A stretch of DNA of 64,000 bases from Panorpa germanica (taxonomy: Eukaryota; Arthropoda; Insecta; Mecoptera; Panorpidae), in the NCBI GenBank assembly GCA_963678705.1, contig OY783205.1:4216001-4280000 (forward strand), read 5' to 3'. The position numbers and the translations under genes are program-made. Under the pieces are notes generated by a model that searched no databases, was not told the DNA's origin, and was given only the letters and a program-made list of their open reading frames with translations. How positions within the stretch are numbered: the stretch's first letter is position 1; each line of letters opens with the position of its first letter. Shown here in pieces: positions 8,260 through 60,670 of the stretch.

Positions 8260-8329
8260 AACCCTACTTAATAAAATATAATTTTATAAATATTTTATAG
8301 TAATCAATTATCTTATACTAATTTGAATA
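8260..8329. promoter_or_regulatory. Candidate bidirectional promoter region
   Basis: Only 70 bp, very AT-rich, separate the ATG of the - strand ORF (8259) from the RCL1 ATG (8330). If the small ORF is real, both transcripts must start here or overlap. No defined TATA box or initiator was assigned. Confidence 0.3.
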
Positions 8330-10199
8330 ATGGCAGCCTTTAAAAAGAAGGGAGACAAATTATGTTACAAGGGGTGCCACTTCTTTAGACAAAGGTTGTT
8401 ATTGTCTACCTTAAGTGGAAAACCAGTGGAGATTAGTGAAATTCGTAGCAATGATATGAATCCTGGTTTAAAGGAATATGAAGTTAATTTGATTAGGCTA
8501 TTAGATAAATTAACTAATGGTTCTAAAACACAGTTAAGCGAAACAGGTACAACAGTTTTGTACTCCCCAGGACTCTTAACTGGGGGTACTGTAACTCACG
8601 AGTGTAACCCTCTGAGGGGAATCGGTAAGAAGAAAAATTCATAACTTTATGTAGAACCTAAATAACTTAATAATTTTCTTATTTTATTCTCATAGGATAC
8701 TATCTGGAAGTTCTTGTAGCTTTGGCTCCATTTTGTAAAAACCCTTTAAACATTACTCTTCGTGGAGTTACAAACAGTCAAGATGGGCCTTCTGTGGATC
8801 ACATTAAGGCCGTAGTTTTACCTGCATTAAAAACTTTTATATTAGATCATGATGACTTACAAATTAAAGTAAATAAACGAGGTAAAGTATGCTTCTAATG
8901 TCTTAATTAACCTATTGTATTAGTTACAAACTGTAACGTAAAATTTGTTTTTAGGCATGATGCCTCTAGGAGGTGGTGAGGTAATTTTCACTTGTCCAAT
9001 AGTAAAACAACTTCGGCCAGTTCTCCGGCTAGATCCTGGCAAGGTTAGTCGAATTCGAGGAACTGTTTACGCTTGTCGTTGTTCACCTGAAGTTGCAAAT
9101 CGTACAATGAGCGCCGCTAAAGGGGTGATGCTAAATTTCTTACCTGATGTTTATATTCACACTGATCAGTGTAAAGGACCCCAAGGTGGCAAGAGTCCTG
9201 GTTTTGGTATTAATCTTGTTGCTGAGACAACCACGGGAGTATTTTATTCTTCGGAACAGGTACATAAAATCAATCTTTGAAAGATACCATAGTATTTCCA
9301 ATGAAACTAGGTCTTCATTAAAAATTATTACAGGTATCTAATTATAAAGTGAATGAAGGTGATCCATCAATACCAGAAGAGTTAGGCACAAAAGCTGCTC
9401 ATCGGCTTTTAGATGAGATTTATCGGGGAGGGTGCGTGGACTCAGTCGCACAATCCTTGGTACTTTTATGGATGGCACTAGGACAAAAAGTTGTTTCCAA
9501 ATTTATTACAGGTAAATATAGACACCTTTATGCTGCTTTCACACTGCAACATACTACTTGCACACCGACTTTTTAATTGGGTGTATTGTGTTTTGCATTA
9601 GTATACTTTATTATGGGATTAAGATTTTGCTTTAATGTTTATCTATACATCACCGTACTGATGGTAATAAAATTGCATATTATATATCTGATCGTTTTCC
9701 TATTTCAACGATCTTTTAAGAATGAACAAACCGGATACGTTATATCGAATATGCATGTCTCGCAAGCATTTGTTGACATATTATAAATCCATACGTATAA
9801 AATACATTCTCCTACGATACAGTGGTGTAATTGATAAACATTAAAACAAGAGCTTCCTCTTATGATAAAGGTTGCTAATGGTCCACCCTACTGAAAAAGT
9901 CGGATGTCGTAAGTAGTGGGTTCCAGTGACCCTAGTTATTCTAATTCTGTATTATTTTAATTTATCTGGTTTTTAATTTTTCATTAGGTCCTTTATCTGA
10001 ATTTACTATAACTTATATTCAACATTTGCGCGAGTTTTTTGGTATTACTTTTCTATTAGAAAATGCAAGATCTAAGACGACGCAAGAAGGTGGTAAAGAA
10101 CTGGATGAAGATGATGATGAAGCACTTCCTGGTGGTTCGAAAGTTTTAATAACATGTTTAGGGGTTGGCTATACAAATATTAATAAAAGAGTAGCATAA
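8330..10199 (+). CDS. Rcl1: RNA 3'-terminal phosphate cyclase-like protein (RCL1)
   Basis: Five exons: 8330-8624, 8696-8881, 8955-9259, 9334-9511 and 9988-10199. All introns are GT..AG and phases are consistent, giving 391 residues (human RCL1 has 373). Landmarks in order: GCHFFRQRLLLSTLSGKPVE near the N-terminus, RLLDKLTNGS, GTTVLYSPGLLTGG, LRGIGYYLE across the first splice, GGGEVIFTCP, RIRGTVYACR, GKSPGFGINLVAETT, EEIYRGG-like DEIYRGGCVDS, and a C-terminal GGSKVLITCLGVG. RCL1 is a nucleolar protein of the cyclase fold without cyclase activity. It binds BMS1 and acts in 18S rRNA maturation at early pre-rRNA cleavage. The GGCVDS segment, in place of the catalytic histidine region of true cyclases, fits the RCL1 branch. 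Introns are short except intron 4 (476 bp). The start is the first ATG and matches the family N-terminus. Confidence 0.96.
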
Positions 10200-23700: not shown

Positions 23701-26700
23701 GCATGGTTTTCGAGATATCGTCAGTTTAAATTTTATTTTTAAATTTTCCATTTTTTAACATTTTTAGGACCTTATTCTGTAAAGTATTTCCACTGGTGAA
23801 AAAATTTCATTGCTGTAAAATAACGTCACAAAAGCGATGATTTTTTATTTGGTATTTTGTAAGAAATTTCCATCGATTTTATTTTTATCGTTGAAAAAAA
23901 ATCGAGCAAATTATAAGGTCGCCTTCAGCGGTGACTTTAAAATTTTTCATCGCTATATTTTTGGGAACTGTCAAATTATTTGAACTATAATTTGCTGTAG
24001 TTGGAGGATTCTACGAAGAAGTAAAAAATAAGTTAGTATTTATATGTATACATATATATTTGATTGACATCCCAGAATATTACAATCTATCCCTAGATAT
24101 AATGTGTATACATATGAATATATAAATATATCAGAAAGTGAGATTATGTTGTTTGTCAATTATTGCTTCAGGTGAATTAGGGACTACAAAAAAATTGCTT
24201 TTTTTTGCATAAATTGTGCATGGCCATTTGAAATTCTATTTATAATAATTATTTTTCCACTGATTTTCCCGTTTTCCTTTTCATAGATGCCATATTGACC
24301 TTTTTTTAATAGATTTTGACATGTAAGAATTAACAACTGTCATTTAAAATATTTTATATTTTTTCTATTTAATACTTTGTCGTGATTGGTCAAATATCAT
24401 CAATACCTATTTATACTCCTTCACCGCTGTACATTATAAAGGCGGTGGAAAATTTTGCATACAGAATACCATTTCAGATATGTTAAATACAACGATCTTA
24501 TTCTATCGATGAAAAAATTAAATATTTCCACCGCTGAAAAAATAAGGTCGATTTTTTGAAAAGTTACAGAATAAGGCCCTTAGTGCCAGCGTTTTCTTGG
24601 AGTTTCTTTTATTTCTACACTATCGTGAATAGTTACTTAAGACGACACATGCGTTATTTTGTCGATGATTAATGTAAAATACGAAAAATTGCCTCAGCTA
24701 AACATTAACTCCGTCTTAGACCAGCTGCTTTAAAAACAATGCTGGACAAGAATTGAGCAAATTATTTTAAAAATTTTGTTATGTTATGCTGGTTCAGGAA
24801 TGGTATAACACTTGTATCTTTCTGATATAAAAAAGGACACCCATTTACGTTTTCTAAACGTTTTTCTAAGAAAAACGGACTAGTCTCTTATTGATAATGT
24901 TCAAAGGTATTGAGAAAGGCTCAAAGATAATTACTTTTGCTGGGGTGTTGAGCTTATTCGACGCGTTTGAGGCAGGTGTCAGTGTGACTTGCTACTTTTG
25001 AGACACTCTCTATAAGAAAGGGCTGCTTAAAAAGTTTTACGATTATGTTAATGGAAAAGAGGGTGCATTTATTTTTAAAGAAACAGTAAAACAGGTCAAA
25101 AAACGTTGTATTTTAGATAACATTTTTTACGTAAGAGATAACTTGTGTTATGTTAAGATCCGTACAGACTGGTGCGACATCCAACATTTGTTGGAAGAAG
25201 TGGTACAACATGTCCACACTAGTGCGACATGCAACTTAATACGTCGGAAGCTTTCATATTTCGAATGAATTCCTTCAACCTACCTTAGAAAAAAAAATAT
25301 TTAAAGAAAAAAAGTAATACTTAGTTATTTAACAAGGTCTCTGCTAGTGATATTGGTCTATTTCATTTGTTCATTTAAACACCATTTTCAATTATTTTTA
25401 TTTATTTATTAAACACAACTAAAAAACGTCAACGCACACTGAGATTGTACTGGAGACTGAATAGGTACTCAACCCTTTTATTCGAGATCACATTCAAACC
25501 GTAAATCTTTTAGAAGTTCTGACTTAGGACTGCAATATTTTTGTTTCACAAAAATACTACTTAGAATTTTAAAAAATAACATGAGGGTTTTATTAGTTTC
25601 GCATGTTTATGTCGCACTAGTAAGTACGTTAAACACATTTAGTACACTCATGTCTAAATAATGTCAGGTTATGAATGAAAATATATAAATGCTGGATGTC
25701 GCATATTTATGCTGCACAAGTGTGTACCATACATTAGCTAAACCTTAAATACATGTAATGGGCTTGTGTCCTCATTTTTTAGTGCTCGATTTTTCAATTG
25801 TTGATTGAAATTGATGTTAATAAATGTGTATTGGTGTGTCTATTTTATTAAATATCTAAATGTTGACGGAGATATAGCAATTAAAAGTTTGAATTGTAGT
25901 TTTAACGCTAGAAATGGTCGGCCATATTTGTATGACGTGAAATGCATTTTAACGTCAGTTATTTGTTGAGTAGGTCAGTGCTGTGGTAATGTTTAGTAGC
26001 TGTTGGTAGTCGAAATAATCAAGTCAAGTCAAAGAATAATAAGTTTTTATTTTATTTAACCCTGCTAAGGCAGACATAATATTTAAATTTTATTATTCCT
26101 TGAAATAGCTGTAAATAATATTTGATATTTTGATATATAAATAGAGATAGCAGAGATTTATGATCTGTAAGGTTGGTAACCTGACACAAGGATTGTGATG
26201 TCACATGCACTTGGAATGTGTACAACGTTGAATCCCTTTAATATTTAAAGAGACAAAATGACTTTTAATTGTTAATATCTCTTAACATATATGGAGTTAT
26301 TAAAAAATAATTGGACATTTGAGGTTCTAGTAGCCCACTTTATCAATATATTTACAATACAGTTTTATAGAAATTAAGACATAGGACACAAGCCCATTGT
26401 GTTTAGCGGGCAGTAACATCTGATCGTATTTTAATCTGGATTAAATTACGACACGGTATTTGCTATTATTGTTTTATGTTTTGTTTTTCATAAACAAACG
26501 CAAAAGAAATACTCGTTTTAAAAAAGGATTGTACATTATGTTTTCGATTTGGTTGACACGGGTTCGTGGGGCTCGCCAAAAATAATCATCTTTTATTTTA
26601 ATGGAATTTGTTTTTAATAATAATTCATAGGTATTTTGTTTTGTGTAGTGCCATGCATGATCTACTATATAAATGAAGAATTATTTTGTTGCTATTTTAG

Positions 26701-29700
26701 ATATTCTATTTATTCGGTATGGTATTTACATTTAAGTATATACAGTAGCTTGAATATTATTTTCTTTTTGTTTATAAACCTCTGCAAAACTGTTTCTTAT
26801 GAGAAACTTTAAAAATTTACATAAGAAACTTCCCGGTCATTTATACCTGAATTTTTGTACTATTATTTGAGGCAAGTTTTTTAAAAGATAATAAAAAATG
26901 ATTCATACACTTAAAATTTGGAGGTCGATACAAATAGTTAAAAATTTTCTCAAAATTTTAGAGACCTAGGGTTCATAGTTTTCTTTTTCTACATGATTAA
27001 AAATAATCATTTTCCATACAAAACATAATGTTTAGCTCAATTTCACCACATAATATAACTTTAAACCGTAAAAAAATGGTGACACGGCTTTCAAAAACTA
27101 GGTGTATATAAAAGAATCTTTTCTGTAACTATTGGAAAAAAAAAATTATCAAAAGGATACCTATATACGAAAATATTTAAATAAAACCAGTAAGAAACAG
27201 TAATTGTGGGTTATGAGCCGGCAACGTTGCAAATCCCAATTTGAGCGGGATATTCAAAATCTCAATAAATATTATATAAAATATAACAATTTATTGGTCA
27301 AGAACCAAATCACGCATGCGTTGACACACGTACATTTACTGCGTTACCAAATTTAGTATTCCTTTTTCAAAATATTTAATTTGAATTTAAATTGAATTAA
27401 TATATATTTGATATTAATTATAGGTAATTTTTCATTTATTAAACTATTATATGCACAAAAAATCATTTTAACAAGCAAAAAAGCAGTTTCATAGGGAATT
27501 GAAAAATTCATTTTCAAAGGTACAGTCCTAATATTTGCTCGTCCCTCATGTACTTCGTATTTTGCATTTCGTATTACGGAGAGATAAACTTTTTCCATTG
27601 ACGGTACGTCCTGTACCTCCTTAATTTTTTTTTGTAACTTCAAAACCAAATGAGATATATATTTTTTTATTTTACTTAGGTTACCGTTAAAAAATCAGAA
27701 ATATTTGAAAAATTATGGTCATGATAGTTAGAAACACTTAAGGGGTGCCAATTTTCGAAATTTTTTTTGTAATTTCAAAACAAAAATGAGATACATTTTT
27801 TTTCTTTTTCGAATAGTCAATAGTTATCGTTGAATTTTGAGAGGACACGTTGTATATGTAATACATATTTTTTTAATTTAATTTATTTAACGTCGGCCTG
27901 TTTCCGATGCTGAGTCTTATCACTGACGACCTCCTACTATGTTCGCTGTTGGTGTCGTCGCCTCATTTATGTGGGCCACACCGGTGCCTAATTGTAGAAA
28001 TATTCTTTATGCACATAATCAATTTAATTTGATAACAATCAAACCCAGAAAATATAAATAATGTCCTGTGATCGAACCCGAAGGTAGTTTGGATTTGCAG
28101 GATTATTTGTGCTGTTTGCCAATTATTAGAGGTCAAGTAGAAGTGCACGATTATTTACCGAACCACCTTCGGCCACACTTATTTCTAAAATATGACAAAT
28201 ATTCAATTCCCAAACATTCATCCAAACTTCTGTTTGTTTCTTTGACAACTGTCATACTTGGGTGACATAAATACTTTCATATTCCAAAAAATTTAAGTAT
28301 AGATTATAAAAAAAATTTACAAGTTGGCATTTTATATTTTGTCATTAAATAATAATACAATATGTAAAAATATCATATTATTAATAATATTTTGATATAC
28401 ATTATGTATAAATATTTTTATTTTAAGTTATGTTTTTATGCCCAAAGCAAATATTTAAACGAAATGTTTGTCTTTATGTACGAATTCCAAATATTTGCCA
28501 ACTGAGCACGAACTATGTGTCCATAAATGTGTCTTTTACACAAACACGCAAGTCTGAACCCGCCATAAGACTAGTAAGCAATGAATTGTGTCCTCATTTT
28601 TTAGTGATCGATTTTTCAATTGTTGATTGAAATTGATGTTAATAAATGTGTATTGGAGTGTCTATTTTATTAAATATCTAAATGTTGACGAAGATATAGC
28701 AATTATAAAGCAAAAAATTGAATTGTAGTTTTAGCGCTAAAGATGGTCGGCCATTTGTATGACGTGAAATGCATTGTATACCTCAGTTATTTGTTGATTA
28801 GGTCAGTGTTGTGGTAATGTTTTCTAGCTGTTGGTAGTCGAAATAATCAAGTCAAGTCAAAGAATAATAAGTTTTTATCTTATTTACCCCTGTTATGGCA
28901 GACATAATATTGAAATTTCATTTTTCCTCGAAATAGCTGTAAATAATATTTGATATTTTGATATATAAATACATATAGTAGAGATTTATGAGGTGTAAGG
29001 TTGGTAACCTGTAAACTTGTCAGAGTTCTGTTAAGAATATCTCTTTTACGCTCTGTTGTATAAAAAAGATAGCAACTAGCGGTTGTGATGTCACATGCAT
29101 TTGGAATGTTTTACAACGTTGAATCCATTTAATAATTAAAAGAGACCAAATGACTTTTTTAATTGTTAATATATTCTAACATATAAGGATTTATTAAAAA
29201 ATAATTGAACATTTAAGGTTCTAGTAACGCATTTTATCAATATGTAGCACACTTTTATAGAAATTAAGACATATGACACAAGCCCATTAATTTACATTTA
29301 TTATATTAAATTCATATGTTTAAGTATTTGCACAACAGAATACCCCATTTTATGTTCCTTTGCAGTAAAATAAATCAGAAATATATATTTTTTTTTAGTT
29401 TAATACTAGATTTAATTATTGGTAATTACAATATAATCAAACTTTAAATATTTAAGTAATACGAATGAAATTTCTATATCAGGGAAAAGTACTAAAAACT
29501 TTACTGGAATATCTGGAATTATCAGTGAAATTTGAAATCAATTTTTTTGTGGCCATCCTGTCATAAAATAATATGCAAATATCGACAAATTATAATTTAA
29601 AGTAGGAAGAAGTGGATCCACTGGATACATTATTCACAGGCCAGTAGTTCAGTGGAACAAAATTTACTTAATATCATTAGGTTGATAGCGTGTAAATTCT

Positions 29701-32700: not shown

Positions 32701-35700
32701 ATTAGTTAGGACACAAACCATCTTGCTTAAATGTTTAAATCAAACATTTATCTGTTACTGATATTAACAGCTGTTATTTTATAATAAGTTCTAACAAAAA
32801 AGTTGTAACTCTTCAATATTTTATTAAAAATATTTCAGATAAGGGCGTATGCCTCCCTACTATCTGCCTGTGGATGATCTTCGTATATGTAGAGGCAGCA
32901 GTCAGGTGGAAAGACCTGAGGCACCTTCCGCTGCACCTAGATTTGTGTCGGCCATTTGCAGCTCATTGGTAAGGTTACAAAACTCTTAGTTCTTGAAATA
33001 AAATATGTACCATATTTCAAATTTATAGTTGGTTGTAGTCTTCGCTAAAGTTAAGCAACTACGTATTTAAATTTAAGTTATTTTAATATTTGCTTAAATT
33101 TATTTTATTATTCGTCATCCTATTATCGTTATTAGTCTTATCACCACCGCCCTTTTACCGCGTTCGTGGTTTTTATAGTAACCAGGTCTTCCTCTTTTAT
33201 TAAAATTCTCGAATTTCTACTTCTGTATCTGTCCTTACATTGAGACTGCTTTCTTCATATGTGTACTTGAATGTGTACGTAAGACCGTGGTTTTCCTAAT
33301 TCGATTTTTAATTTTAATTTCAGCATTGGCTATCCAGTAGTGACACTAGGATTTGGATTCAAAAGTTACGTTGGTTACCGTATGCGACAAAGACGGCAAC
33401 GAGACGTATCAAAAGAAAATGAATTCTATTTACAATTACTACAACAGGCTCTTCCACAAGAACCAGAATCTCCAGTAGTAGAAAGTCCACAACCACCACA
33501 GCCTGTTAAGCGACCAGTAGAGAAATCAGTAGAGAATACAAAAATCATTCACAATGGCCATATAACGTCAAATGGTGTTAGGCATCATAGAAAAAGTATG
33601 GACAAAGACAGACCGAATGATAGGGATAGAGACAGAGATACTGTAGAAAGAGATAGATCTACTCACGCTCACATAAAGAGTTTTGATAATACAAATATAA
33701 TAAAGACTGATCATCATAATGTTAGTTCGAGTACACGGGAGCACTTGAGCACAAGAAACGATCACAATCATACCACAAAAGTGGATAAAAGTGATAATAG
33801 TACAAAAAGTGAGTCAAATAAAAGTGATACAAGTGCAAAATACGATCCCAATCGAAATGATACATATAAACATGATAAAAATAGCGATCACATACACATA
33901 AAAAGTGACAAAAGTGATAAAATTGATAATCATGTTAGAGATACACATAACAAAATTGAAAATCATAAAATGGATCTAAATCATCAAAACATTAAAAGTG
34001 ACAAAGAACTTTATAAAAATAATATGAATAATATGAAAGAAAATAAATGTGATAACTACAACCATACGTCGCGCCATGAGAGCTTCGCAAAGGAAGTCCA
34101 TAATTTAAGACAAGAACTAGCAAAACAGGAAATGCATATGATGAGGGCGGATAGGAGCGATCATCAGATCAAGGCTGAACCTAGACAAGAGCCTGTTGCA
34201 GGAAAAGGTGGAAAACATGTTGAGAATGCTGGAAATCTGCAGGCAGATACGAGTGACACCATGGAAAAAGCACCACAGCAAGAAACGGAACCTGTTGACA
34301 AAAATATGAAAGGTAATAGGTTTTAAAAGATAATTGTTTAGAGCAATATACATACTGACTAAAAAAATGCACAACGTATAGAATATAGCCAGGGGAAGTA
34401 AGGATCGCTTGTTCAATAGAGAGAAGAAGCCACTTTGTTTATTTTGATTAATAGAAAACAATGTTAGTTCTGGTTATCGGTGTCATGAACCTTTTGGGTA
34501 AAAGCCAAGAATGTTTTGGGAAAAATCATAAATACAAACTGCGAATATGTTGTGTATTTGAAGTAGTAAAGGTACTCCGATAAACACAGTTACATATATT
34601 TAAGGGATATCTAACATAACAAAGTTTACCCTTCATGTAAAATATTCTAGTATAATTTAATATCAAGTTACATACATTTTCTGACGTCAATGAAACTTTT
34701 TATGCAAAGTTATGCAGTTTTACGTATTTCCTCGCGTAAAATTCAAAAGATTTTATTAAGAATATAGATAAATCATATGAGTATTAATAATAAAATATAT
34801 ACATATATGAGACATATTTTCAATGCCAGAAAAATAACGTATTTTCTCGGTCTTCCATAATCGTACACGAAACTGTTTTTGTTAATGAAGAACAAGCTGT
34901 GCAAAAATGAACAGAATAATTTAGTTTTTGAGTCGCAGCTTTATGTAACGTATAACGTTAAATTTAATTTTAATTAATTAAAGAGGCATCATCTGTATGA
35001 CAGGGTGCGTCAGAGAAGTAGAAAAATTACAGGTGGCTGAAAAAAATTAAAAATACAATTTTATTATTTATTAGGTATTAATAGAAATTACATAAGTAAC
35101 TTTTTGGTGACCAAATCGAATATAAAGTTATTACCATTTTATCATAATTTACTGTAAACTTGGTTTATCAAATAATATTTATTCAATTTAATATGAATAC
35201 CGTAAGGAGTAGTCGTGTGGAATGCTAATTGTGAGCATCTTTTTATTTAGTTAATGCCAATTCTTTAATTATTGTAGAAGTATTATATGATCTAATTATC
35301 TTTATTTTTAAATTTAGCTAAAAATAGAGGGTCATCTGTTCCTGATAGACGCAAAAATAAAGACAAAAAAGATAAAGAAAGAGAAAAAGATAAAGATAAA
35401 GAAAAAGAAAAGGAGAAAGAAATCTCACAACCTGATCCAGGTACAATAATTTATATAATTGTACATTATTTAAATCATTTGATAACTAATGGTTGATTGT
35501 ATCTATTAGCTCCTTGTGAATCATGTGCAAAATTAGAGGCCGAAGTACGACGACTTCGTTCTGACCTCCAAACAGCAAGACAATCTGAAAACCAGGCCAA
35601 GATACAAGATCGGTCTTGTAAGGCGGAGCTAGCACAAGCACAAAAAGAAAACGAAGAACTCGTTTCAAAGTAAGTAAGGTGCAACAATGCAATCTGAAGA

Positions 35701-39305: not shown

Positions 39306-40619
39306 ATATATATATTTCATAAAAAAAATTATACAATTTTGTAGGAATTTTTCCGCATATGCACCATAAATCTTAGCAAACCGTGGAATTGATTTTGTTA
39401 AAAAGTAATAAAACAACAGTATCAAATTATATTTAAAAAAAGGAGTTATCTAGTTTAATAATAAAATAAAGTAAGTTTACTTTTTCTCTTTAAGAAATTT
39501 ATTTATTTGGTTAATATATATGATATCTGTGCGAGCATATAATAACTTGATGTTGCCAATAAATGGATATTTTTTTTGGTAAATCTGACATAGAACCGAG
39601 CATTGGCAATTGGGTTGGCAGCAATTTTTTCCTTTTACGTAAAAGGGTCAAACCTGGATTCACATTTGAGTTTTCGAAAAGGAGGACGCGGAAGGGAGAT
39701 TATAATATTATATACAACTTTTGTAGATAATTTTTCATTGTAACTTTTATAATAAACAAGATATAAGCAAAATAAATTTTAAATTTAGTGATGTAATGAC
39801 TAAGCTGTAGAACTTAATTTCTGTAGTGCCCTTCGTTCATTATCCCATTTAATTTTTGGTCAAAAATGTTGAGTAGTTTAGTAGTTTATGATATAGATTT
39901 AGATTAGAAATATTGTAGCTATCAAAAATGATGCCGGAGGTAGAGATTGTCAATAACTTTTATTTTTTACATTATGGAAAAACTCTACCATATACAACAA
40001 TATCGTTAATTTAACGATAAAGGATAAGCTGTTTTTACAGTTAGGAAATTGACCTACACAATTTTTAATCGCCTATCAATTTAAAGTTTCTTCAATGTCT
40101 CTTTCTTGTTTTTACTTTATTTTTTTTCTTACAACCGTCTGGTTAGGTGGCTGTAATGTTATATACCTTGACTTAGATTTAGTAGAATAAGCTTGCTGAA
40201 TCGATGATAACGATGTAATTTTTATTTCAGCTCTTATACGTAGCCAAGAAAAAGAACTTAGTGAGTTAAAATCTCGTTTAGCACAAGTGCTTGCCGTTAT
40301 GCCGCCTGATTCTTTTGGTCCTGGCCCTCCTTGCGGGGGCACAACTTCTAAGCTACGCCTGGCAGATACGCCACCATTACTACCGCCTCAATTAGGACTG
40401 TCTTCACCTCAACTAACTATGAACGGACAACTCGGCTTGAATGGAAACATGCAAATGAATATGAACGGCCAGTTAGGACTTAATGGATCGATGCAACAAC
40501 ATGGCCCCGGCGTTGTAGCCGGGTCGGGTAACGGACAGGCCAACTGCCCGGGCTCCACGTTAGATCCTAATGCTACTGCCTACACTCCGAAGAACTCAAT
40601 CGTCGGTGGAGAGGTTTGA
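20799..40619 (+). CDS. Macoilin (TMEM57-type membrane protein)
   Basis: Eleven coding exons: 20799-20878, 29959-30100, 32308-32434, 32839-32968, 33324-34312, 35318-35440, 35510-35669, 35778-35933, 36359-36494, 38375-38564 and 40231-40619. All borders are GT..AG and phases are consistent, giving 873 residues (human 664, nematode close to 900). It starts with MKRRNADCGKMRRPIKRNKI, the family signature, followed by several membrane spans (residues about 29-170) with FRFEFLWPFW, FIPVHWLFFAASTYVWVQYV, DLCRPFAAHC and IGYPVVTLGFGFKSYV. Exon 5 adds about 270 residues rich in Asp, Asn, His, Lys and Ser. Exon 6 is a Lys/Glu/Asp tract (KDKEREKDKDKEKEKEKE), exons 7-10 encode a long coiled coil, and the C-terminus has the conserved DPNATAYTP. 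Macoilin is a rough-ER/neuronal protein needed for normal neuronal excitability in nematodes. Intron 1 is 9.1 kb and full of MITEs. The start matches the family. Confidence 0.97.
22957..23208 (+). repeat. Dispersed repeat D, copy 1
   Basis: The block from taaacattttgga through CATCATATTGAAGAT, TATTTTATCGGCTACAAATG and a GTCGGAATACAAATGAA-type box to ttgaactggg is repeated at 37021-37265 in the same orientation with scattered changes. No coding capacity. Family unknown. Confidence 0.75.
23613..25012. mobile_element. Foldback element interrupted by a nested MITE
   Basis: Arms at 23613-23680 and 24950-25012 are inverted copies: CTCTCAAAAGTAGCA..CACTGACA..CCTGCCTCA..CG..CGAATAAGC on the left, and the reverse complement of the same boxes on the right. 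The element at 23767-24579 lies between them with its own ends and target duplication, so the foldback is older. No ORF. Confidence 0.65.
23767..24579. mobile_element. TTA-flanked MITE (813 bp), nested
   Basis: Ends GGACCTTATTCTGTAA and, inverted, GGGCCTTATTCTGTAAC. TTA lies directly outside both ends (23764-23766 and 24580-24582). A 3-bp TTA duplication is the PIF/Harbinger signature, so I infer a non-autonomous member. There are internal inverted boxes around accgctgaaaa. No coding frame. Confidence 0.75.
25162..25726. mobile_element. Inverted-repeat element with TGCGACAT boxes
   Basis: The left end GTACAGACTGGTGCGACATCC corresponds to the inverse of the right end GGATGTCGCATA..GCACAAGTGTGTAC. 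A second inner pair (CACTAGTGCGACAT near 25217 and ATGTCGCACTAGT near 25610) is also inverted. No ORF and no clear target duplication. Confidence 0.6.
25757..26398 (+). mobile_element. MITE family A, copy 2 (642 bp)
   Basis: Perfect 16-bp terminal inverted repeats, AATGGGCTTGTGTCCT and AGGACACAAGCCCATT. The interior matches the copies at 4480, 28580 and 57192. It starts only 31 bp after the previous inverted-repeat element. No ORF. Sequences just outside the ends do not form an obvious duplication. Confidence 0.9.
28580..29288 (+). mobile_element. MITE family A, copy 3 (709 bp, with insert)
   Basis: The left end is decayed (AATGAATTGTGTCCTC); the right end is intact (GACACAAGCCCATT). It carries about 70 bp not found in copies 1, 2 and 4, placed just after the central TAAGGTTGGTAACCT. 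That segment has an ATCTCTTTTA..TAAAAAAGAT hairpin and is shared with the diverged copy at 46648. Confidence 0.88.
30101..32307. other. Macoilin intron 2 (2.2 kb)
   Basis: AT-rich intron holding the Helitron-like element at 31602-31926. A 64-codon frame at 30965-31156 (ALISLAYWGIVILYI) looks like AT-rich chance sequence. Nothing else was recognised. Confidence 0.6.
31602..31926 (+). mobile_element. Helitron-like non-autonomous element (325 bp)
   Basis: It starts TCTTCTTCTTCTTAATATAT, then has the boxes TACGTGTCACGTTGTTTGT and ATGGACTCCTAAACTACTTA, which are widespread in insect repeats. It ends GCAACGCGTGGCC..CAGCTAG followed by T. A 5' TC, a 3' CTAG and insertion between A and T (31601/31927) fit Helitron rules. 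No Rep/helicase coding. It sits in macoilin intron 2 in the sense direction. Confidence 0.6.
37021..37265 (+). repeat. Dispersed repeat D, copy 2
   Basis: The second copy of the block at 22957-23208, same orientation, with substitutions and small indels. It ends at ttgtttactggg. Both copies are in introns of macoilin. Confidence 0.75.
37373..37520 (+). repeat. Fragment of a common insect dispersed repeat
   Basis: The boxes AAATGCTGTTCGTTGATAAG, GCATCACTTGAGAATGGCTG and GACCGATTTGG in this order are a pattern I know from many insect genomes as part of a short non-autonomous repeat. Ends were not defined here. Confidence 0.45.
38565..40230. other. Macoilin intron 10 (1.7 kb)
   Basis: AT-rich. 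It includes a (TA)n tract at about 39268-39303 and a CTTTTACGTAAAAG palindrome near 39633. No gene was seen. Confidence 0.6.
39268..39303. repeat. (TA)n microsatellite
   Basis: About 17 TA units within macoilin intron 10. Confidence 0.9.
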
Positions 40620-46647: not shown

Positions 46648-47144
46648 AATGGGATTGTGAACTCATTTTTTAGGGGTAGATTTTTTAGTTGTTGATTGAA
46701 ATAGTTTTTAATAAATGTATATTGGCGTTTTCATATGATTAAATATCGTAATGTTGACGGAGATATAGCAATTCAAAATTTGAATTGTAGTTTTAACGCT
46801 ACAGATGTCAGCCATATTTATGACGTAACATGTTGCACTATTAGGGAAAAGTTAGTTATTTGTTATATGACAAGAGTTATATGTAAGTATGCTATCTCTT
46901 TTACGTTCTGTTGTATAAAAGAGATGGCAACGTACCGGACATGACGTTGTATGTATTGGAATTTTCTATAACGTTGAATCCCTTTAATAACTATAGAGAA
47001 AAAATTACTATTGTAATTAATAATGTTTTCCCAAAATATAGCGAGCTATTAAAAAATAATTCGATATTTGAGATCCTAATAGTCAACTTTATCAATATAT
47101 TGCACAGTTTTATTGAAATTAAGACATGTTTCATAAACCCCATT
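46648..47144 (+). mobile_element. Diverged MITE family A copy (A', 497 bp)
   Basis: Starts AATGGGATTGTGAACTCA and ends CATAAACCCCATT, a variant of the family A ends. It keeps TTGACGGAGATATAGCAATT, the ATCTCTTTTACGTTCTGTTG hairpin segment and the TTAAAAAATAATT box. It lacks the TAAGGTTGGTAACC core. Confidence 0.78.
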
Positions 47145-50257: not shown

Positions 50258-52345
50258 CCCGCTAAACACAAAACGTAAATATTACATAAAATAACCGTAA
50301 TAGATACAACTATTTTATGTAAAATATGTCTGTTATACACGTGTGCAATAACTGCGTTTAGCGGGTCTGCAGTAAAAGTCTTTTAGTGCGATGAACAAAT
50401 CATTTCTAGGTAAAGTACTGTGTGTTCATTAGTTCATATGCAATTTATGTAAATAAACTAATTATTCATTATTTATTTATAATATATTTTACTTTTAGTT
50501 GTTTAACACTGAAATATATAATAACATAACCTCAAAAACAATGCGGTAATAAATGACAGTTGACAGTTTTGAATCGACAAACACACTGGTATGATTTTTT
50601 CGTGGAGGGGATGGTTTTGTTTAGTAAGCCAATCATATCTATGTCCGAATGTGTGTTAGACAGAGAATGAATATCTTTTTCTCGTTCTGCTGCACAGAGA
50701 AACCTATTAACCAAATCGTTTAAGGTAAATCTCGAAGTAATATATAATAGCCTCAAAATTTGAATAAATCTTTATTTGGTATTTTATAAGTTAGTTTATG
50801 AATTTCATAGAATCATGTGCACGTAAGTCTTGATTATCAAAGGTCAAAGGTCATAAAATATGTTCTTTTGTAGATATCATGTTTTCTTTGCTGTAAATGA
50901 CATTTAAAGTTATTAATAAAATCGTAGAGCATAAAATTCTCTACAAATTTGATTTTACGCACTTTGTCGCATGATTAACTGTTTCCGAGATATAGAGCGA
51001 AGAGTGGTAGGTAGGCTCGCAATTTTTTTTAGCCCATATATAAAATTTAAACTTTTTAGCCCTATTTTTACCTTCGGTAAAAACCGCCCCCGTGACCCCA
51101 AATAAAATTTTTGAATTATGAAATTTATTTTCTTAATAACATATTTCATTATTATGTATTCCAAAATTTGAGTTTTCTTCAAAGTGCCTGGAAAGTGCAT
51201 TATCCGTGCACATGAGAGTGAGTGAGACATAAACATTGATTACCTGATACCTGGAAAATGGCCGCCAGGTCAAGTTAGCAGGTATGCATACGATCATTGT
51301 ACCTACTAACACTACTCAATCTTACACATTTTGTTCATCAGAAAATAAGTGATGTCTGGCGGCCCTGGGATCTTGGACTATAATAAGTACCCGTAAAAAC
51401 ATTATCCAAACAAGGACGCGCGCAGAAGGATTAATCCTACGAAAAATACATACAAAGAAATTTGTGGATAATTTTATGCCAAGTTTTAGGCGGTCTTAAC
51501 AGGAAGCGTCCTTTAACCTTTGAAAATAAGGACTTGTGTACACGAAGATTTTATACCAATTGTGGAACTAACTTATAAAATGTCAACACAAAGATTTAAG
51601 CCTATGATATTTCACTCCGAGGTTGAATCCTTGTCACTGAATCAGATCATCCTCCCCTAAACCTTTCTAGACCTGTAGGTAGATGTAGCTAAAATACAGG
51701 CAGGTAATTAGTGAACCGAATTAACCCTTTCGTATGTATAAATATTTGACTTCCTTTGTTCATGTTACATTTGTATATAATTTTTCTTGTTTTGATGAGA
51801 ATTCGCTCTCTAAGTGTCAATAAAAGTCATATTAAAAAAAAATATATGAAAAATAAAATATATGAATCTTGGAAGAGATCAATTGTATATGGTGTTTTAA
51901 TACCCTCCTGGGCTAATCCTGTTAAATCCTTAGAATATTGTAGAACTAAGCACTGCCTGATGATGTAAGATTAATGTTGAATAAAATAAGTTACAGTGAT
52001 GCCTCGGGTTACGAATGCCTCGAGTTATGCCGGTTTTACACCAGATAGACAGTTGCATAAAACTGCAACAAAAAGTTGTTTTTTTAAAGTTGTATCAATG
52101 TTTACACCAACTAGACAGTTTTTACAACATTTTTGTCATGTGTTGCAGTTGTTTGCAACACAACACAGTCCCATTTGGAGTCGTACTCCACCGACTCCAG
52201 ATCTATTTACTACAATAACGTACAAAATATATTTTTTAAAATGGAAACTTATTAAATATGGATTCCGGCCAGTAATAAATAATTGTATGAATGAAATGAA
52301 ATGTGGTCATCAGTTTGGATCTTTGGACAAAGAAATAAAAAAAAA
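50258..52345. other. Intergenic stretch left of the LTR element
   Basis: Holds repeat E copy 2 (51075-51185). Near 52025-52130 a pair of related blocks (tttacaccagatagacagtt and tttacaccaactagacagtt) suggests another decayed repeat. No host gene was seen. Confidence 0.45.
51075..51185 (+). repeat. Dispersed repeat E, copy 2
   Basis: Counterpart of 48225-48335, same orientation, about 110 bp with a handful of differences. Sequence on both sides differs from that around copy 1. Confidence 0.85.
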
Positions 52346-52596
52346 TGTAAGGCTCTAAAGCCTATAAAAGGTGGTATTTGTCAGGATCTGTGTTTATGCG
52401 TAGAATAAATTAAACAGAAGTTATGATTAAAATGATTTAATAACTAAATATAAAACTGATACAAGTTATACGTGTTGCTACTACGACACACCACAAGAGA
52501 CTCCTCGTTTATACTGCATATCAAGTACATTCAACTTAATAACTATTTTACAATATAAATTCAAATTTTGGCGAGTATAATAATCTTTTGCTTATA
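52346..52596 (-). repeat. 3' LTR (left)
   Basis: 251 bp, identical to the LTR at 56512-56762 except for one position near 52573 (ggcgagtat against ggcgggtat). On the - strand it contains a TATAAA-type motif in the middle. Upstream purines on the coding strand (agtcagaaagg) are a weak polypurine tract. Confidence 0.93.
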
Positions 52597-52624
52597 GTCG
52601 GCCTTTCTGACTTCATGATTGTCC

Positions 52625-55600
52625 TCAATCATCTTCGCTGTTGGGTTGATCCTCCTGGTCATCATCTTCTTCTTCTTCTTCTGGGCTTCCTTCCTCACCT
52701 TCCTCCTCGTCGGGTAGTTGGCACCAGAGTTTCATTCTGTCGGAAGCGAATACGGATTTAAACGACCTCTGTGTTCGTTTGGCTCCTGGTATGTCTTCCA
52801 GAATGTATCTGTCGTGTGGTAATACTTCTGTCACTAGATATGGTCCCTTGTACTTCGGTGTAAGCTTCCTGGAGCTCCCTGTGGCTGCTGCTTCTCGTTC
52901 TACAAGCACCATATCTCCTTTGCTGTACTGCGTTGGTTTGAGTCTTTTTGAATCAAATCTCCTCTTTTGTGTTATTTGATTTTTGTCTATTGCTTCTTTC
53001 GCTTTTAAACGAATCTCGTTTAAACTTAGTTCTGAATCGTCTGTTGCAGTATCCTCGTCCAATGTGATTAGGATCTTATTCTGCAATGCGTTTCTTGGGT
53101 TAAAATCAAATAATAAGCTGTGTGGGGTCATACCTGTGGTTTTATTCGTTGTACTGTTCAAAGCCCACTGTATGCTTTTCAAATTCTTGTCCCAATGCTG
53201 TTCATCTTTTGCCATTGTTGTAATTGCTGCTAACAATGTCCTGTTGTATCTCTCGACTTGTCCATTTGCTCTTGGAGTTGCTGTCGCTGTCATAATGTGA
53301 TGTATTCCATTTTCGTCACAATATGCTTCGAAGTTCTTTGAAGAATACGCTGTTCCTCTGTCTGTAACTAGCTGTGTTGGCGGTCCAAATGTTTCAATAA
53401 TGCTATTCATTACTTGGATTACTGGTCTGGTCGCTGTAGTTTTCACTGCTCGCACTACAACATATTTTGTAAACGAATCAATGTATACTAAAACATATGA
53501 GTTACCTCTTGTACTTCGCGGAAAAGGTCCTAGATGATCCATATGACATGTGTGAAACGGGATAGGGATCCTCTCGGTGCAATGCATTTGACCTTCTTTC
53601 TTTCCACTTCGAGTCTTGTGATAAGCACATTCAATACACGCTTTGATGTATTTCTTGACGTACTGTCTCATTCTTGGGAACCAGTAGTGTGTTTTCAGAT
53701 GTTCTAGAGTCTTTTCTTCTCCGAAATGTCCTAGGTCATCGTGACTTTGTTTCACTATTCTCCATTTGATGTTTCCTGGTACGACCCATCGTTTGTCCTG
53801 TTTTCGATAGATGCGTCCTTTTTCTAGTACATAATCTGTATGCACTTGCTTTTCTTCATTCGTGGTTGGTTTTCTCTTTAATTGATTATAGATTTCTTGC
53901 AATTTCGGGTCTTGGCGTTGCATTGTTAATAACCAATCCTCTTCAGATATGTGTATGTTCATTACTTTCATATCTACTACTTCTGCTTCTTGACATTCGT
54001 CATGTGGTGCTCTGCTTATGGCGTCGACATGTTCCATCTTCTTAGAAGTTCTGTATTCTAATTCCATATCGTATTCTTGAAGATGTAGCCACCATCTTGC
54101 TATTCTTGGTATTAAATCTCTTTTCGACATCGTTGATTGCAGTGCGTTGCAATCTGTTATCACCTTAAATGGTCGTCCTAGTAGATATACTCGAAATCTT
54201 TTCACTGATTCTACTACTGCGAGAGTTTCCATTTCGTAGCTGTGATATTTCTGTTCTGCTGGTGTCGATTGTCTACTGAAATAAGCAACTGGATTTAATA
54301 TTTTCTTATCATTGTATTGCAATAAAATACCTGCTATTCCATAACTGCTGGCGTCACAGTGTAATACATGTTTTGCGTTAACATCATACAACTGTAGTAA
54401 TGGTCTACTTGTTATTGGTTCTTGATCCGTTAATTCTATTTTCATTTCCACAAGGTTAGTTGTTCCTATTTCATAAATGTTTTTCGCGAAACATTCACGA
54501 TTTTCAACTATCAATTCACATAAATTTTCTTTTTCCTTTTCAGATAAATTAGTCTGTATATTTATCTCTGCTTTTTCTATTGGCTCGCTATATTTAATCT
54601 TGTTCACGTGTGAAATTGTTTTGTTTTCCTTGTCATCATCAACGGTTTCTTCATTATTTGGTTTTATGATTACTTCTCCATTTTTAATTACGATTATTAG
54701 TCTGCTGTTCGATAAAGCACTTCTTCCAATGATTATATCATTTTCCTGAGCTTCATTTGGTACTAATAGAATTTCGCACATTACATCAATTCCGTCGATC
54801 GTAATTATTGATTCACGTTTTCCAAGAGAGTTACATGTTCCTTGGCCAAAACCAATTAATGTTACATTGTGATTCATGAATTTCATATTCATTTTCTTTG
54901 CGATATCTTCTTTTATCGTGACAACTTCACTTCCAAGATCTAAAAATGCGTTAATATTAAGACCATCTATCTGTACTAATTTACAAAACATACCTTCGAT
55001 ATTTTGCTTTTTAGTTTCACATTTCATCTGTTTCTTTGGCTCTTCTTTAGCTTCTGTCTTAACTATTGACTTAGTTCTGCATGTAGAAGCTTCATGTCCG
55101 TGGCGTAGACATCTTGTACATTTTTGTCCCTCATTACTTCTCTTATTTGGACAGTTTCTGGCTATATGACCTATATTATTACACAAATAACATTTCCTTA
55201 TTTCACTTCGTACCTGTGTTTTGTCTGGTTCCTCCTGACGAATTCTTTGTTCGTTCTTTGACATTGTTGACTTTCCAGGTCGAGAATACTCTTGGCGATA
55301 CTTTAGTTGACTGATTGTTTCTTCGTAGACCTTGATCTGTTCCATTAGTTCGTTCAAATCAGCATATTTGACTAATGAGAGCGTACGAATCATATCTACG
55401 TCATTCAATCCACTGATGATATATTTCTGTATTGCGACGTTTGACAACCTGCCTCTGTTTCCTATTGCAACAACAGAATAGAAATATTCTTCAATTGTTT
55501 CGTCTCGTTGTCTAGTTCTTTTTGTCAACTGCATGTGTATTTTACTTTCGTCTTCATTGCTCGGGAACGCTTTGACAAATGCCTGTGAAAATAAGTCGAA

Positions 55601-56056
55601 ATTAGTGTAATATTCGTCTATAGATTCATACCAGAGTTTCGCCGGCCCTTGTAATTTTGACACTAGGTGCAATATCAGCATCTTCTCGGTCCAATTGTAG
55701 GTTTCTGCAATATTCTTGATCTTCTCAACCCATTTTGTTGAACTCAAGCTATTTATGTTCGTCGGGTCGAAGTCCGGTAACATTCCTATAACTTCTTTGA
55801 TACTGTATTGATTGTGTTCAGTATTACTTCTTGGTAAGCTGAAAGATTGATTAAAAATTATTTTCTCACGTTCTAACAGTTCTTTTTCTTTATTTACTAA
55901 ATTCCGTTCCCATAGTAAATATTCTCTTTGAGTATCTAATGCATTTCTTTCTTGGGCTAAATTGTCAGCCATGTTGGATCTCTGTGTATCTGACACTTCG
56001 TGGTCGATATCGATCGGACTACCACTGCGGCTACCTTGTGAACTATGATCGGTCAT
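52625..56056 (-). CDS. Gag-Pol polyprotein, RT domain deleted in frame
   Basis: 1143 residues in one frame. A Gag capsid-like region (about 85-255) is followed by two zinc knuckles (C289-C292-H297-C302 and C313-C316-H321-C326). A retropepsin region (365-470) has D373-L374-G375 where D-S/T-G is normal, followed by IIIGRSAL. A linker reaches EPITSRP (546-552). Residue 553 then begins the end of the RT-RNase H connection, so the RT palm with its Y-x-D-D and the thumb (around 330-350 residues in relatives) are absent. RNase H follows (D568, E610, D635, D678), then the integrase zinc motif (H772, H777, C807, C810), the integrase core D840, D899 and E935 with exactly 35 residues between the last two, and a C-terminal domain with an acidic tail (1116-1143). 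The first ATG is used. The frame is intact apart from the missing RT. Confidence 0.93.
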   Translation of the reverse strand: MTDHSSQGSRSGSPIDIDHEVSDTQRSNMADNLAQERNALDTQREYLLWERNLVNKEKELLEREKIIFNQSFSLPRSNTEHNQYSIKEVIGMLPDFDPTNINSLSSTKWVEKIKNIAETYNWTEKMLILHLVSKLQGPAKLWYESIDEYYTNFDLFSQAFVKAFPSNEDESKIHMQLTKRTRQRDETIEEYFYSVVAIGNRGRLSNVAIQKYIISGLNDVDMIRTLSLVKYADLNELMEQIKVYEETISQLKYRQEYSRPGKSTMSKNEQRIRQEEPDKTQVRSEIRKCYLCNNIGHIARNCPNKRSNEGQKCTRCLRHGHEASTCRTKSIVKTEAKEEPKKQMKCETKKQNIEGMFCKLVQIDGLNINAFLDLGSEVVTIKEDIAKKMNMKFMNHNVTLIGFGQGTCNSLGKRESIITIDGIDVMCEILLVPNEAQENDIIIGRSALSNSRLIIVIKNGEVIIKPNNEETVDDDKENKTISHVNKIKYSEPIEKAEINIQTNLSEKEKENLCELIVENRECFAKNIYEIGTTNLVEMKIELTDQEPITSRPLLQLYDVNAKHVLHCDASSYGIAGILLQYNDKKILNPVAYFSRQSTPAEQKYHSYEMETLAVVESVKRFRVYLLGRPFKVITDCNALQSTMSKRDLIPRIARWWLHLQEYDMELEYRTSKKMEHVDAISRAPHDECQEAEVVDMKVMNIHISEEDWLLTMQRQDPKLQEIYNQLKRKPTTNEEKQVHTDYVLEKGRIYRKQDKRWVVPGNIKWRIVKQSHDDLGHFGEEKTLEHLKTHYWFPRMRQYVKKYIKACIECAYHKTRSGKKEGQMHCTERIPIPFHTCHMDHLGPFPRSTRGNSYVLVYIDSFTKYVVVRAVKTTATRPVIQVMNSIIETFGPPTQLVTDRGTAYSSKNFEAYCDENGIHHIMTATATPRANGQVERYNRTLLAAITTMAKDEQHWDKNLKSIQWALNSTTNKTTGMTPHSLLFDFNPRNALQNKILITLDEDTATDDSELSLNEIRLKAKEAIDKNQITQKRRFDSKRLKPTQYSKGDMVLVEREAAATGSSRKLTPKYKGPYLVTEVLPHDRYILEDIPGAKRTQRSFKSVFASDRMKLWCQLPDEEEGEEGSPEEEEEDDDQEDQPNSEDD

Positions 56057-56494
56057 AATTCCTGTTTCGGTTGGTTCTGCTTTTTGCTATCTAACTCAGA
56101 CTTAAACCTTTCAGAATTAGTTAGATTCCTTGCTAAATGACAAAAATCCTTTTTTTTGCCAATTAGTTTCCTAGGTGGAGTTGTATGTGCCTCGTTCAAA
56201 GTTCACACGTTGACGCAACTCTGTTCTGCGTATCTTTGGGTGTGGTCTATGACGTCACTACAAGTCCTTTGTTCTCGTAATTCGCTAATTATAACTCCAA
56301 AATCCACTGATTTATCGTATAATTATTAATTACGCTTTTTACTCTTTCCTTAATTTTAACTTTGATCTTTTGCGCTGGATTCACTTAGAAATTAGCTCAC
56401 TCAAAATTAAAACAGAGTAATGGCGGTCTCTTGGTCATAAAAATCACTTTTTCTTATTTAATTTCACGATTTTAATCTTTTTAAATTCGCGTTT

Positions 56495-56507
56495 ATCCCA
56501 CTTCTGA
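56495..56507 (-). other. Candidate primer-binding site, tRNA-Leu type
   Basis: Just inside the 5' LTR the - strand reads TCAGAAGTGGGAT. This is complementary to the 3' part of an insect tRNA-Leu as I remember it, the primer used by mdg3/micropia-type elements. The first bases after the LTR (gtttt) do not match the expected TGG. Confidence 0.5.
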
Positions 56508-56511
56508 AAAC

Positions 56512-56762
56512 TGTAAGGCTCTAAAGCCTATAAAAGGTGGTATTTGTCAGGATCTGTGTTTATGCGTAGAATAAATTAAACAGAAGTTATGATTAAAATG
56601 ATTTAATAACTAAATATAAAACTGATACAAGTTATACGTGTTGCTACTACGACACACCACAAGAGACTCCTCGTTTATACTGCATATCAAGTACATTCAA
56701 CTTAATAACTATTTTACAATATAAATTCAAATTTTGGCGGGTATAATAATCTTTTGCTTATA
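56512..56762 (-). repeat. 5' LTR (right)
   Basis: 251 bp. On the + strand it starts TGTAAGGCTCTAAAGCC and ends CTTTTGCTTATA. One mismatch to its partner implies recent insertion. A leader of about 455 bp separates it from the Gag ATG at 56056. Confidence 0.93.
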
Positions 56763-57191
56763 AAAATATATATTATAATATTGAGTTTCTTTTTTCGTTT
56801 CAAAAATACCGATTTGATTTCTTATATTTTCGTAATAATAAAGTGAATTTACTTAATAAGACAATTTATTCGATGTACCTACACCTTTTGCTTTTTCATT
56901 TGTAAAAAAACTACTCTATTTATGTATGTTTTGTGATGCTTGTTGTATAGTCAAAACATGTACAAATTACTACGTAATATTTATTTTATCACCTTTTATT
57001 AAGAAATTGATGATATTGAGGGTTAAAGTTGACCAAAAAATGTGAAATTTTACGTCATTTTACATATAATTCATTAATAGTGGGTAGTGTAATACTGACT
57101 TCCCCAGGTTCAAACCAATTAGAAATGTATATAATAGGTTTGAATATATGACAAAATGAATTTAGAAAAGGTTTAAATATATGATAAAATA

Positions 57192-57810
57192 AATGGGCTT
57201 GTGGCCTCATTTTTTAGTGGTCGATTTTTCAATTGTTGATTAAAATTAATGGTAATACATGTGTATTGGTGTGTCTGTTTTATTAAATATCTAAATATTG
57301 ACGGAGATATAGCAATTAAAAGTTTGAATATGGTCGACCATATTTGTATGACGTGAAATGCATTTTAACATCAGTTATTTGTTGAGTAGGACAGTGCTGT
57401 GGTAATGTTCTGTAACTGTTGGTAGTCAAATAATCAAGTCAAATCAAAGAATAATAATTTTTTATTTTATTTAACCCTGCTAAGGCAGACATGATATTTA
57501 AATTTGGTTATTCCTTGAAATAGCTGTAAATAACATTTAATATTTTGATATATAAATACATATAGCAGAGATTTATGAGGTGTAAGGTTGGTAACCTTAC
57601 ACAAGGATTGTGATGTCACATGCACTTGGAATGTGTAAAAGTTGAATCCCTTTAATAATTAAAGAGACAAAATGACTTATTTAATTGTTAATATCTCTTA
57701 ACATATAAGAAGTTATTAAAAAATAATTGAACATTTGAGGTTCTAGTAACTCACTTTATCAATATATAGTACACTTTTATAAAAATTAAGACATAGGACA
57801 CAAGCCCATT
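57192..57810 (+). mobile_element. MITE family A, copy 4 (619 bp)
   Basis: Ends AATGGGCTTGTGGCCT and AGGACACAAGCCCATT. The central inverted repeat GTGTAAGGTTGGTAACCTTACAC is perfect here, with 10-bp arms around GGT. No ORF and no evident target duplication. Confidence 0.9.
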
Positions 57811-59825: not shown

Positions 59826-59835
59826 TATGTTTCTT

Positions 59836-60670
<835 letters not shown>

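What the first reader, a model, noticed from the sequence alone, without database searches (positions are those of the whole stretch)
52625..56056. Intact Gag-Pol frame with the reverse transcriptase cleanly removed
Seen: 1143 codons without a stop, near-identical LTRs (1 mismatch in 251), complete RNase H and integrase motifs, and a direct join from residue 552 (ITSRP) to residue 553, which already belongs to the stretch before RNase H, at about position 54400. Known: Ty3/gypsy elements need RT between protease and RNase H. Inference: either a very recent in-frame deletion, or a non-autonomous family that keeps Gag, RNase H and integrase for use in trans. The total of 4.4 kb is about 1 kb short of typical relatives.
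Basis: partly seen in the sequence, partly recalled or inferred. Interest (0 to 1): 0.75.

Follow-up and report, generated by a model that had tools for sequence, protein, structure and literature searches.

The report
Retrotransposon copies missing their reverse transcriptase
This is a young jumping element that has lost the enzyme it needs to copy itself, yet the same shortened form sits at three separate places in the genome, so it most likely spreads by borrowing that enzyme from complete relatives.

Summary
A 4,417-bp Ty3/gypsy-type element lies on the minus strand, with 251-bp LTRs (1 mismatch), a 4-bp target duplication and one open Gag-protease-RNase H-integrase frame without reverse transcriptase (RT). 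The same genome holds full-length relatives (about 5.25 kb). Against one of them the window copy lacks 840 nt; the crossover lies inside an imperfect 18-nt direct repeat, at 54412-54414.

The same 36-nt join occurs exactly three times in the genome (up to 3 mismatches allowed, none seen), at unrelated sites, each with a 4-bp duplication and LTR pairs differing at 0-2 positions. Four further RT-removing deletions were found. Of 40 scored copies 16 lack RT, as do 8 of 19 elements sampled by LTR. Other copies keep RT but lack integrase.

Best reading: RT-less alleles are mobilised in trans by full-length elements, within a population that recombines heavily. Two cautions: flanking SNPs hardly group the RT-less copies, so recurrent deletion is not excluded; and the in-frame lengths of the two main deletions are expected from the repeat structure, not proof of selection. 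It works like mouse IAP 1Δ1. New variant of a known kind.

The parts
52342..52345 (.). 4-bp target-site duplication, left copy (TTTT in element orientation; lies in an A/T run)
52346..52596 (-). 3' LTR, 251 bp
   Evidence: 1 mismatch to the other LTR
52597..52620 (-). polypurine-tract region just upstream of the 3' LTR
   Evidence: same 24 nt in 12 of 16 copies printed; L009, L023 and L013 differ slightly, L014 was misread by the script
52625..56056 (-). single open frame, 1143 codons: Gag - zinc knuckles - protease - (no RT) - RNase H - integrase
53273..53560 (-). integrase core (rve); D840, D899, E935, spacing D-35-E
53609..53782 (-). integrase zinc-binding domain (HHCC)
54071..54385 (-). 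RNase H domain (complete RT_RNaseH profile; D568, E608, D635, D678)
54412..54414 (-). crossover interval of the 840-nt deletion that removed RT
   Evidence: pattern hit at window 54395-54430
54692..54976 (-). aspartic-protease-like domain (D373-L-G-S at the presumed active site)
   Evidence: (below curated cut-off)
55145..55198 (-). CCHC zinc knuckle 1 (a second one follows in the frame, residues 313-326)
55403..55663 (-). Gag (Retrotrans_gag) match
   Evidence: 24.0 bits against a cut-off of 24.1
56488..56511 (-). primer-binding region after the 5' LTR; its core resembles the complement of a tRNA-Leu 3' part (recalled, not tested)
56512..56762 (-). 5' LTR, 251 bp
56763..56766 (.). 4-bp target-site duplication, right copy

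Best explanation
The locus is a young RT-less copy of a Ty3/gypsy-type LTR retrotransposon whose full-length members are still present in the same genome. The RT segment was lost by a template switch between two imperfect direct repeats while a full-length RNA was being reverse transcribed. The shortened RNA keeps LTR ends, primer site, polypurine tract, Gag, RNase H and integrase. It is packaged with full-length RNAs and is copied by RT supplied in trans, so the deletion now exists as an allele in a strongly recombining population of elements, alongside other RT-less alleles and integrase-less ones. Shown: the anatomy, the full-length relatives, the identical join at three unrelated sites with 4-bp duplications and young LTRs, the other deletion classes, and the recombination. 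Inferred: packaging with full-length RNA, RT in trans, and that new copies descend from RT-less templates. Not shown: that the RT-less polyprotein does anything.
For: Identical 36-nt join at exactly 3 places, 0 mismatches; no match between the 400-bp flanks of these three (low-complexity filter on); 4-bp duplications TTTT, TTAT, TATA (all in AT-rich, repeat-like sequence, so weak singly); LTR-pair differences 1, 2 and 0. Class B (786 nt) in 6 copies, with duplications CTAG, GTAC, TATT, TAAT for four of them. RT-less in 16 of 40 scored copies and in 8 of 19 elements of a sample chosen by LTR and not by RT; such a share is hard to reach by a rare deletion per cycle. The 8-nt LTR ends and 24-nt primer region are identical in 3 class A, 5 class B and 4 young full-length copies, with LTR-pair differences of 0-2 in both groups. 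Full-length copies with open frames exist. The C1 join of L023 recurs, identical over 58 nt, in a C18 copy with further deletions. Crossover in the same 3-nt interval in 3 of 3 class A and 4 of the 5 class B copies shown. All four class D copies share a letter 111 nt from the join that none of the 27 other copies typed there has. In a Gag-region tree three of the four class B copies included form one clade (96/99).
Against: Flanking SNPs hardly set the RT-less copies apart: class B differs within itself as much as from RT-bearing copies (3.0 against 3.1% at reference 2100-2330); class A 1.7 against 2.8% on the left and 1.0 against 0.8% on the right. In 19 of 21 comparisons random draws of copies gave similar or lower values in more than 5% of draws. 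One class B copy (L028b) has a different crossover and left flank, class D is not one clade (p-AU 0.03), and the fourth class B copy groups with a class A copy in the Gag tree (93/87), so deletions recur or recombination moves them. In-frame lengths of A and B are expected from the repeats. Low dN/dS may reflect selection in full-length templates.
Confidence: 0.72

Rival explanations
1. Recurrent, dead-on-arrival deletion: each RT-less copy was made once, from a full-length RNA, by a template switch at the same imperfect repeat, and none of them moves again.
For: A and B joins lie in imperfect direct repeats, 14 and 13 of 18; little or no flank linkage; L028b has its own crossover; class D sits in two subfamilies.
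Against: Needs a few repeat pairs to be used again and again so that 8 of 19 sampled elements lack RT; crossovers fall in the same 3-nt interval in 3 of 3 class A and 4 of 5 class B copies shown; linkage is mostly lost within about 60 nt everywhere in this family, so missing linkage is not evidence for recurrence; class D shares a private letter 111 nt from its join.
Confidence: 0.2
2. Ectopic gene conversion between genomic copies spread the deletion, without retrotransposition of RT-less RNA.
For: Mosaic SNP patterns; the identical inverted duplicate on C18 shows DNA-level rearrangement.
Against: In young copies the two LTRs differ at 0-2 positions while listed LTRs of other copies differ from the window's by about 2 to 6%, as expected if mosaics form before insertion; conversion tracts should carry flanking SNPs along, which is hardly seen.
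Confidence: 0.06
3. Assembly artefact or collapse at the window locus.
For: Only one assembly was available.
Against: The same join in three contigs with different flanks, and 24 RT-bearing copies assembled elsewhere.
Confidence: 0.02

Closest known systems
Mouse IAP 1Δ1 elements (PMC6466679 and PMC7411935, passages seen)
   Same: Internal deletion leaves one fused Gag-Pol frame; non-autonomous, moved with proteins from full-length copies; makes most new IAP insertions.
   Different: Endogenous retrovirus with a 1.9-kb deletion of part of gag and pol. Here a Ty3/gypsy-type element loses RT while Gag, RNase H and integrase stay, and several RT deletions coexist.
RLG_Quinta/RLG_Cereba, RLG_Sabrina and RLG_WHAM of wheat (PMC11302176, PMC9744471, passages seen)
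   Same: Autonomous and non-autonomous partners sharing LTR ends and primer site; the non-autonomous one may supply Gag.
   Different: The plant partners lack both RT and integrase; here integrase and RNase H are kept in an open frame.
mdg3-lineage element cqgypsy_29 of Culex (PMC3286476, table passage seen)
   Same: 5.3 kb, LTR 263-264 bp, tRNA-Leu primer, 4-bp target duplication: close to the full-length form here.
   Different: Listed there with two ORFs; lineage membership here was not tested by phylogeny.
Onsen recombination in Arabidopsis (PMC5668417, passages seen)
   Same: Frequent recombination between co-packaged RNAs of one LTR family.
   Different: A copia-type element (recalled), seen in experimental bursts; here inferred from linkage decay.

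Membership tests
Ty3/gypsy LTR retrotransposon | Paired LTRs and short target duplication | tested here: met
Ty3/gypsy LTR retrotransposon | Domain order Gag - PR - RT - RNase H - IN with similarity to Ty3 | tested here: inconclusive
   RT in place in the full-length relative; the window copy lacks RT but aligns with Ty3 over RNase H-IN (E 5.6e-46)
mdg3 lineage | RT phylogeny | not tested
   no reference RT set used
mdg3 lineage | tRNA-Leu primer site, 4-bp target duplication, about 5.3 kb | tested here: inconclusive
   Target duplication and size agree; the tRNA match rests on recall, no tRNA was found in the window or in 20 loci
Non-autonomous partner of an autonomous LTR element | Shared LTR ends, primer site and polypurine tract | tested here: met
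   for classes A and B; the C1 copy differs at one position of its LTR end
Non-autonomous partner of an autonomous LTR element | Same period of insertion | tested here: met
   LTR-pair differences 0-2 in A, B, C1 and in four full-length copies
Non-autonomous partner of an autonomous LTR element | Mobilisation in trans observed | not testable with these tools
   needs particle RNA or new-insertion data
IAP 1Δ1-like | Fused Gag-Pol protein that helps in cis | not testable with these tools
   open frame only

The most novel reading that the evidence does not exclude
A retrotransposon population that behaves like a multipartite virus: RT-less/integrase-bearing and RT-bearing/integrase-less genomes complement each other and are kept by selection, with full-length copies no longer required.
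Probability: 0.08. Interest if true: 0.85.

Novelty: new variant of a known kind. Interest (0 to 1): 0.5.

Why it matters
Non-autonomous LTR elements that I know of have mostly lost much of their coding capacity (recalled). Here mainly RT is lost, in five different deletions, and in at least five copies the rest of the polyprotein frame stays open. That gives a natural series of deletion alleles (RT-less, integrase-less, gag-less) in one recombining family, in which one can ask which functions an LTR retrotransposon can borrow and which it must carry. It also warns that RT-based surveys would have missed 8 of the 19 elements sampled here by LTR.

Tried and rejected
In-frame deletions as proof of selection: all five RT-removing joins are multiples of three (840, 786, 573, 564, 657), which at first looked like P = 1/243. 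A control on one full-length frame showed that imperfect repeat pairs able to remove RT are mostly in frame anyway (11 of 14 pairs at 13+/18; 5 of 5 at 14+/18; 29 of 52 at 12+/18). C2 and D (9/18) are less affected, but two joins are too few, so I dropped the argument.

dN/dS as proof that RT-less proteins are used: 0.11-0.35 (Gag-protease) and 0.04-0.24 (RNase H-integrase) over 28 pairs of 8 open-frame copies each. It cannot separate selection in RT-less copies from selection in their full-length ancestors.

Single-lineage test by flanking SNPs: undecided for A and B. Of 21 uncorrected comparisons two were low, both class B at reference 1860-2330 (0.005 without L028b, 0.018 with it; 400 draws each); not used.

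A first list of five 'private' class D sites was cut down when older copies were added: only reference 2383 is both private to D and away from the join.

Searches that led nowhere: IMG/VR, phage records (one weak match at 28.8% identity annotated as an IS407-like element), Rfam, tRNAs. Paper searches: one search found nothing; some searches listed 20 of 315, 15 of 59 and 15 of 69 papers, of which I saw titles and abstract starts and, for those named, passages; I saw no insect case of this kind among them, which is no proof of absence. Searches looked for the primer site, for IAP and for recombination. PMC5004834 (passages) turned out to describe an element lacking integrase, not RT.

Not done: genome-wide counts of classes B, C, D and of RT-bearing copies, because the genome search was mostly unreachable. 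One search scored 40 of 150 candidates and one search scored 40 of 203, so counts other than class A are lower bounds. The probe spans the window's join and so favours RT-less copies; the probe is the window's own LTR and so favours copies with a similar LTR.

Full report
The element. On the minus strand of the window lies a 4,417-bp LTR retrotransposon: LTRs 52346-52596 and 56512-56762 with one mismatch in 251, a 4-bp target duplication TTTT and one open frame of 1143 codons. Pfam marks Gag, a zinc knuckle, protease-like matches, a complete RNase H, the integrase zinc domain and the integrase core, and no reverse transcriptase. Of eight open frames examined, the five RT-less ones keep the RNase H and integrase catalytic residues (which residues these are is recalled), though L019a has lost the presumed protease aspartate; a YxDD motif occurs only in the three RT-bearing ones, one of which (L021) has a changed RNase H residue. 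Ty3 Gag-Pol is the best solved relative, aligned over RNase H-integrase (E 5.6e-46).

The source genome. The window is part of a 464-Mb assembly of an unnamed organism; RNA-cyclase-like and macoilin-like exons in the window point to an animal (inference). A 201-base probe across the join gave 48 matches, which are 40 scored places out of 150 candidates. I fetched stretches covering all 39 places outside the window and classified the 40 copies by their DNA: 24 carry the RT segment, whole or nearly so and not always in an open frame, and 16 do not. Full-length copies are about 5.25 kb. Three copies bearing both RT and integrase have an unbroken stretch of 1430, 1433 and 1435 codons between stops (the window's is 1153 by the same measure); one of them has a damaged 5' region and LTR. 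The RT piece of one full-length copy gives RVT_1 at 4.5e-36.

The deletions. Measured on a full-length copy there are five RT-removing joins: A 840 nt (window, L009, L010), B 786 nt (six copies), C1 573 nt (L023, later also an inverted pair on C18), C2 564 nt (L024 and L025, nearly identical and probably one duplication) and D 657 nt (four copies). A and B join inside imperfect repeats (14 and 13 of 18 matching), with hybrid sequence at the join, as template switching leaves; C2 and D have little homology there (9 of 18). Open stretches of 1153-1252 codons remain in five RT-less copies (window, L012, L019a, L023, L028b); the other RT-less copies with whole elements examined are broken. Other copies lack integrase but keep RT: L014, L015 and L017 share one deletion, L014 with an open frame, an RVT_1 match and no integrase-core match in its 3' piece; L029 and L037 have others, not in frame. 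L016 lacks most of gag and the protease.

Spread of the window's form. An exact search allowing 3 mismatches found the 36-nt join at three places only, all without mismatch: the window, C1 and C98. Their 400-bp flanks share no match with one another; among all nine copies compared, the window's right flank shares a 139-bp, 74% match with that of class B copy L012, probably a dispersed repeat. Each class A copy has a 4-bp duplication, but all three lie in AT-rich, repeat-like sequence and are weak singly. LTR pairs differ at 1, 2 and 0 positions, while L009 and L010 differ from the window by 3.6 and 2.5%, so the three were not made from one template by simple copying. Class B shows the same, with distinct duplications CTAG, GTAC, TATT and TAAT; the tandemly placed L019a has none. 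Over all classes 19 of 21 elements have a 4-bp duplication.

How common. In the LTR-based sample (40 of 203 candidates scored), 33 places fall into 19 fetched elements, of which 8 lack RT. Of the seven other places five were examined: two are the C18 inverted pair with the C1 join and further deletions, one element has RT, and two elements show no family sequence at the expected RT position. Two were not examined.

Recombination. In 17 copies that I took as young, with 134 two-letter sites, linkage falls from r2 0.50 below 20 nt to 0.15 at 20-60 nt and about 0.07 beyond 500 nt; four-gamete pairs rise from 23% to 85%. Low within-copy against higher between-copy LTR divergence places this exchange before insertion, as described for Onsen (PMC5668417, passages).

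Does the RT-less form move, or is it made afresh each time? Flanks cannot decide it: RT-less copies are hardly closer to each other than to full-length ones, which is expected under either view once linkage is lost within about 60 nt. For descent speak the shared crossover interval (A 3 of 3; B 4 of the 5 shown), the perfect 36-nt identity of class A, the C1 join found again, identical over 58 nt, in a further-deleted copy whose surroundings differ at 14 of 387 positions, a letter private to class D 111 nt from its join, a Gag-tree clade of three of the four class B copies included, and the high share of RT-less elements. For recurrence speak L028b's own crossover and flank, class D in two subfamilies (p-AU 0.03), and the fourth class B copy grouping with a class A copy, although recombination would explain the last two as well. 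I put 0.72 on mobilisation in trans and 0.2 on recurrence; both may act together.

Selection. The five lengths being multiples of three is not strong evidence, because repeats in this coding sequence favour it. Low dN/dS between open frames is compatible with selection on full-length ancestors. Whether the RT-less polyprotein is useful remains open.

Comparison. [quoted passage not shown] passages), and like the plant autonomous/non-autonomous pairs (PMC11302176, PMC9744471; passages). Size, target duplication and the likely tRNA-Leu primer site (recalled) match an mdg3-lineage element of Culex (PMC3286476, passage), but lineage was not tested. What differs is that RT is the part lost while RNase H and integrase stay in frame, several times in one family, with integrase-less copies beside them.

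Noticed in passing
L014, L015, L017, L029, L037: Copies of the same family that keep RT but lack integrase sequence, one deletion shared by three copies; L014 has an open frame.
   Followed up: partly
L016 4053-7887: A copy lacking most of gag and protease but keeping RT, RNase H and integrase sequence between LTRs; no 4-bp duplication.
   Followed up: no
L052 and L053 (C18, several kb apart): Identical inverted duplicate (1134 of 1134 aligned bases) of a multiply deleted copy with the C1 join.
   Followed up: partly
L024, L025, L041, L042 (C15): Two pairs of near-identical copies about 290 kb apart, probably a segmental duplication or an assembly duplicate.
   Followed up: no
L019 (C2:7019127-7035518): Four LTRs in a row; RT-less class B elements appear to share an LTR in tandem.
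   Followed up: no
window 25757-26394, 28579-29288, 46648-47143, 57192-57810; inverted 4474-5052: A dispersed repeat family of about 600 bp with several diverged copies in this window.
   Followed up: no
window 8327-9280 (+): Exons of an RNA 3'-terminal phosphate cyclase-like gene (Pfam RTC and RTC_insert).
   Followed up: no
window 33283-34326 and 40200-40619 (+): Macoilin-like exon (E 1.8e-27), with a weak second match below cut-off downstream.
   Followed up: no
window 977-1423 and 59835-59939: A 238-bp tandem duplication and a TA microsatellite of about 52 units.
   Followed up: no
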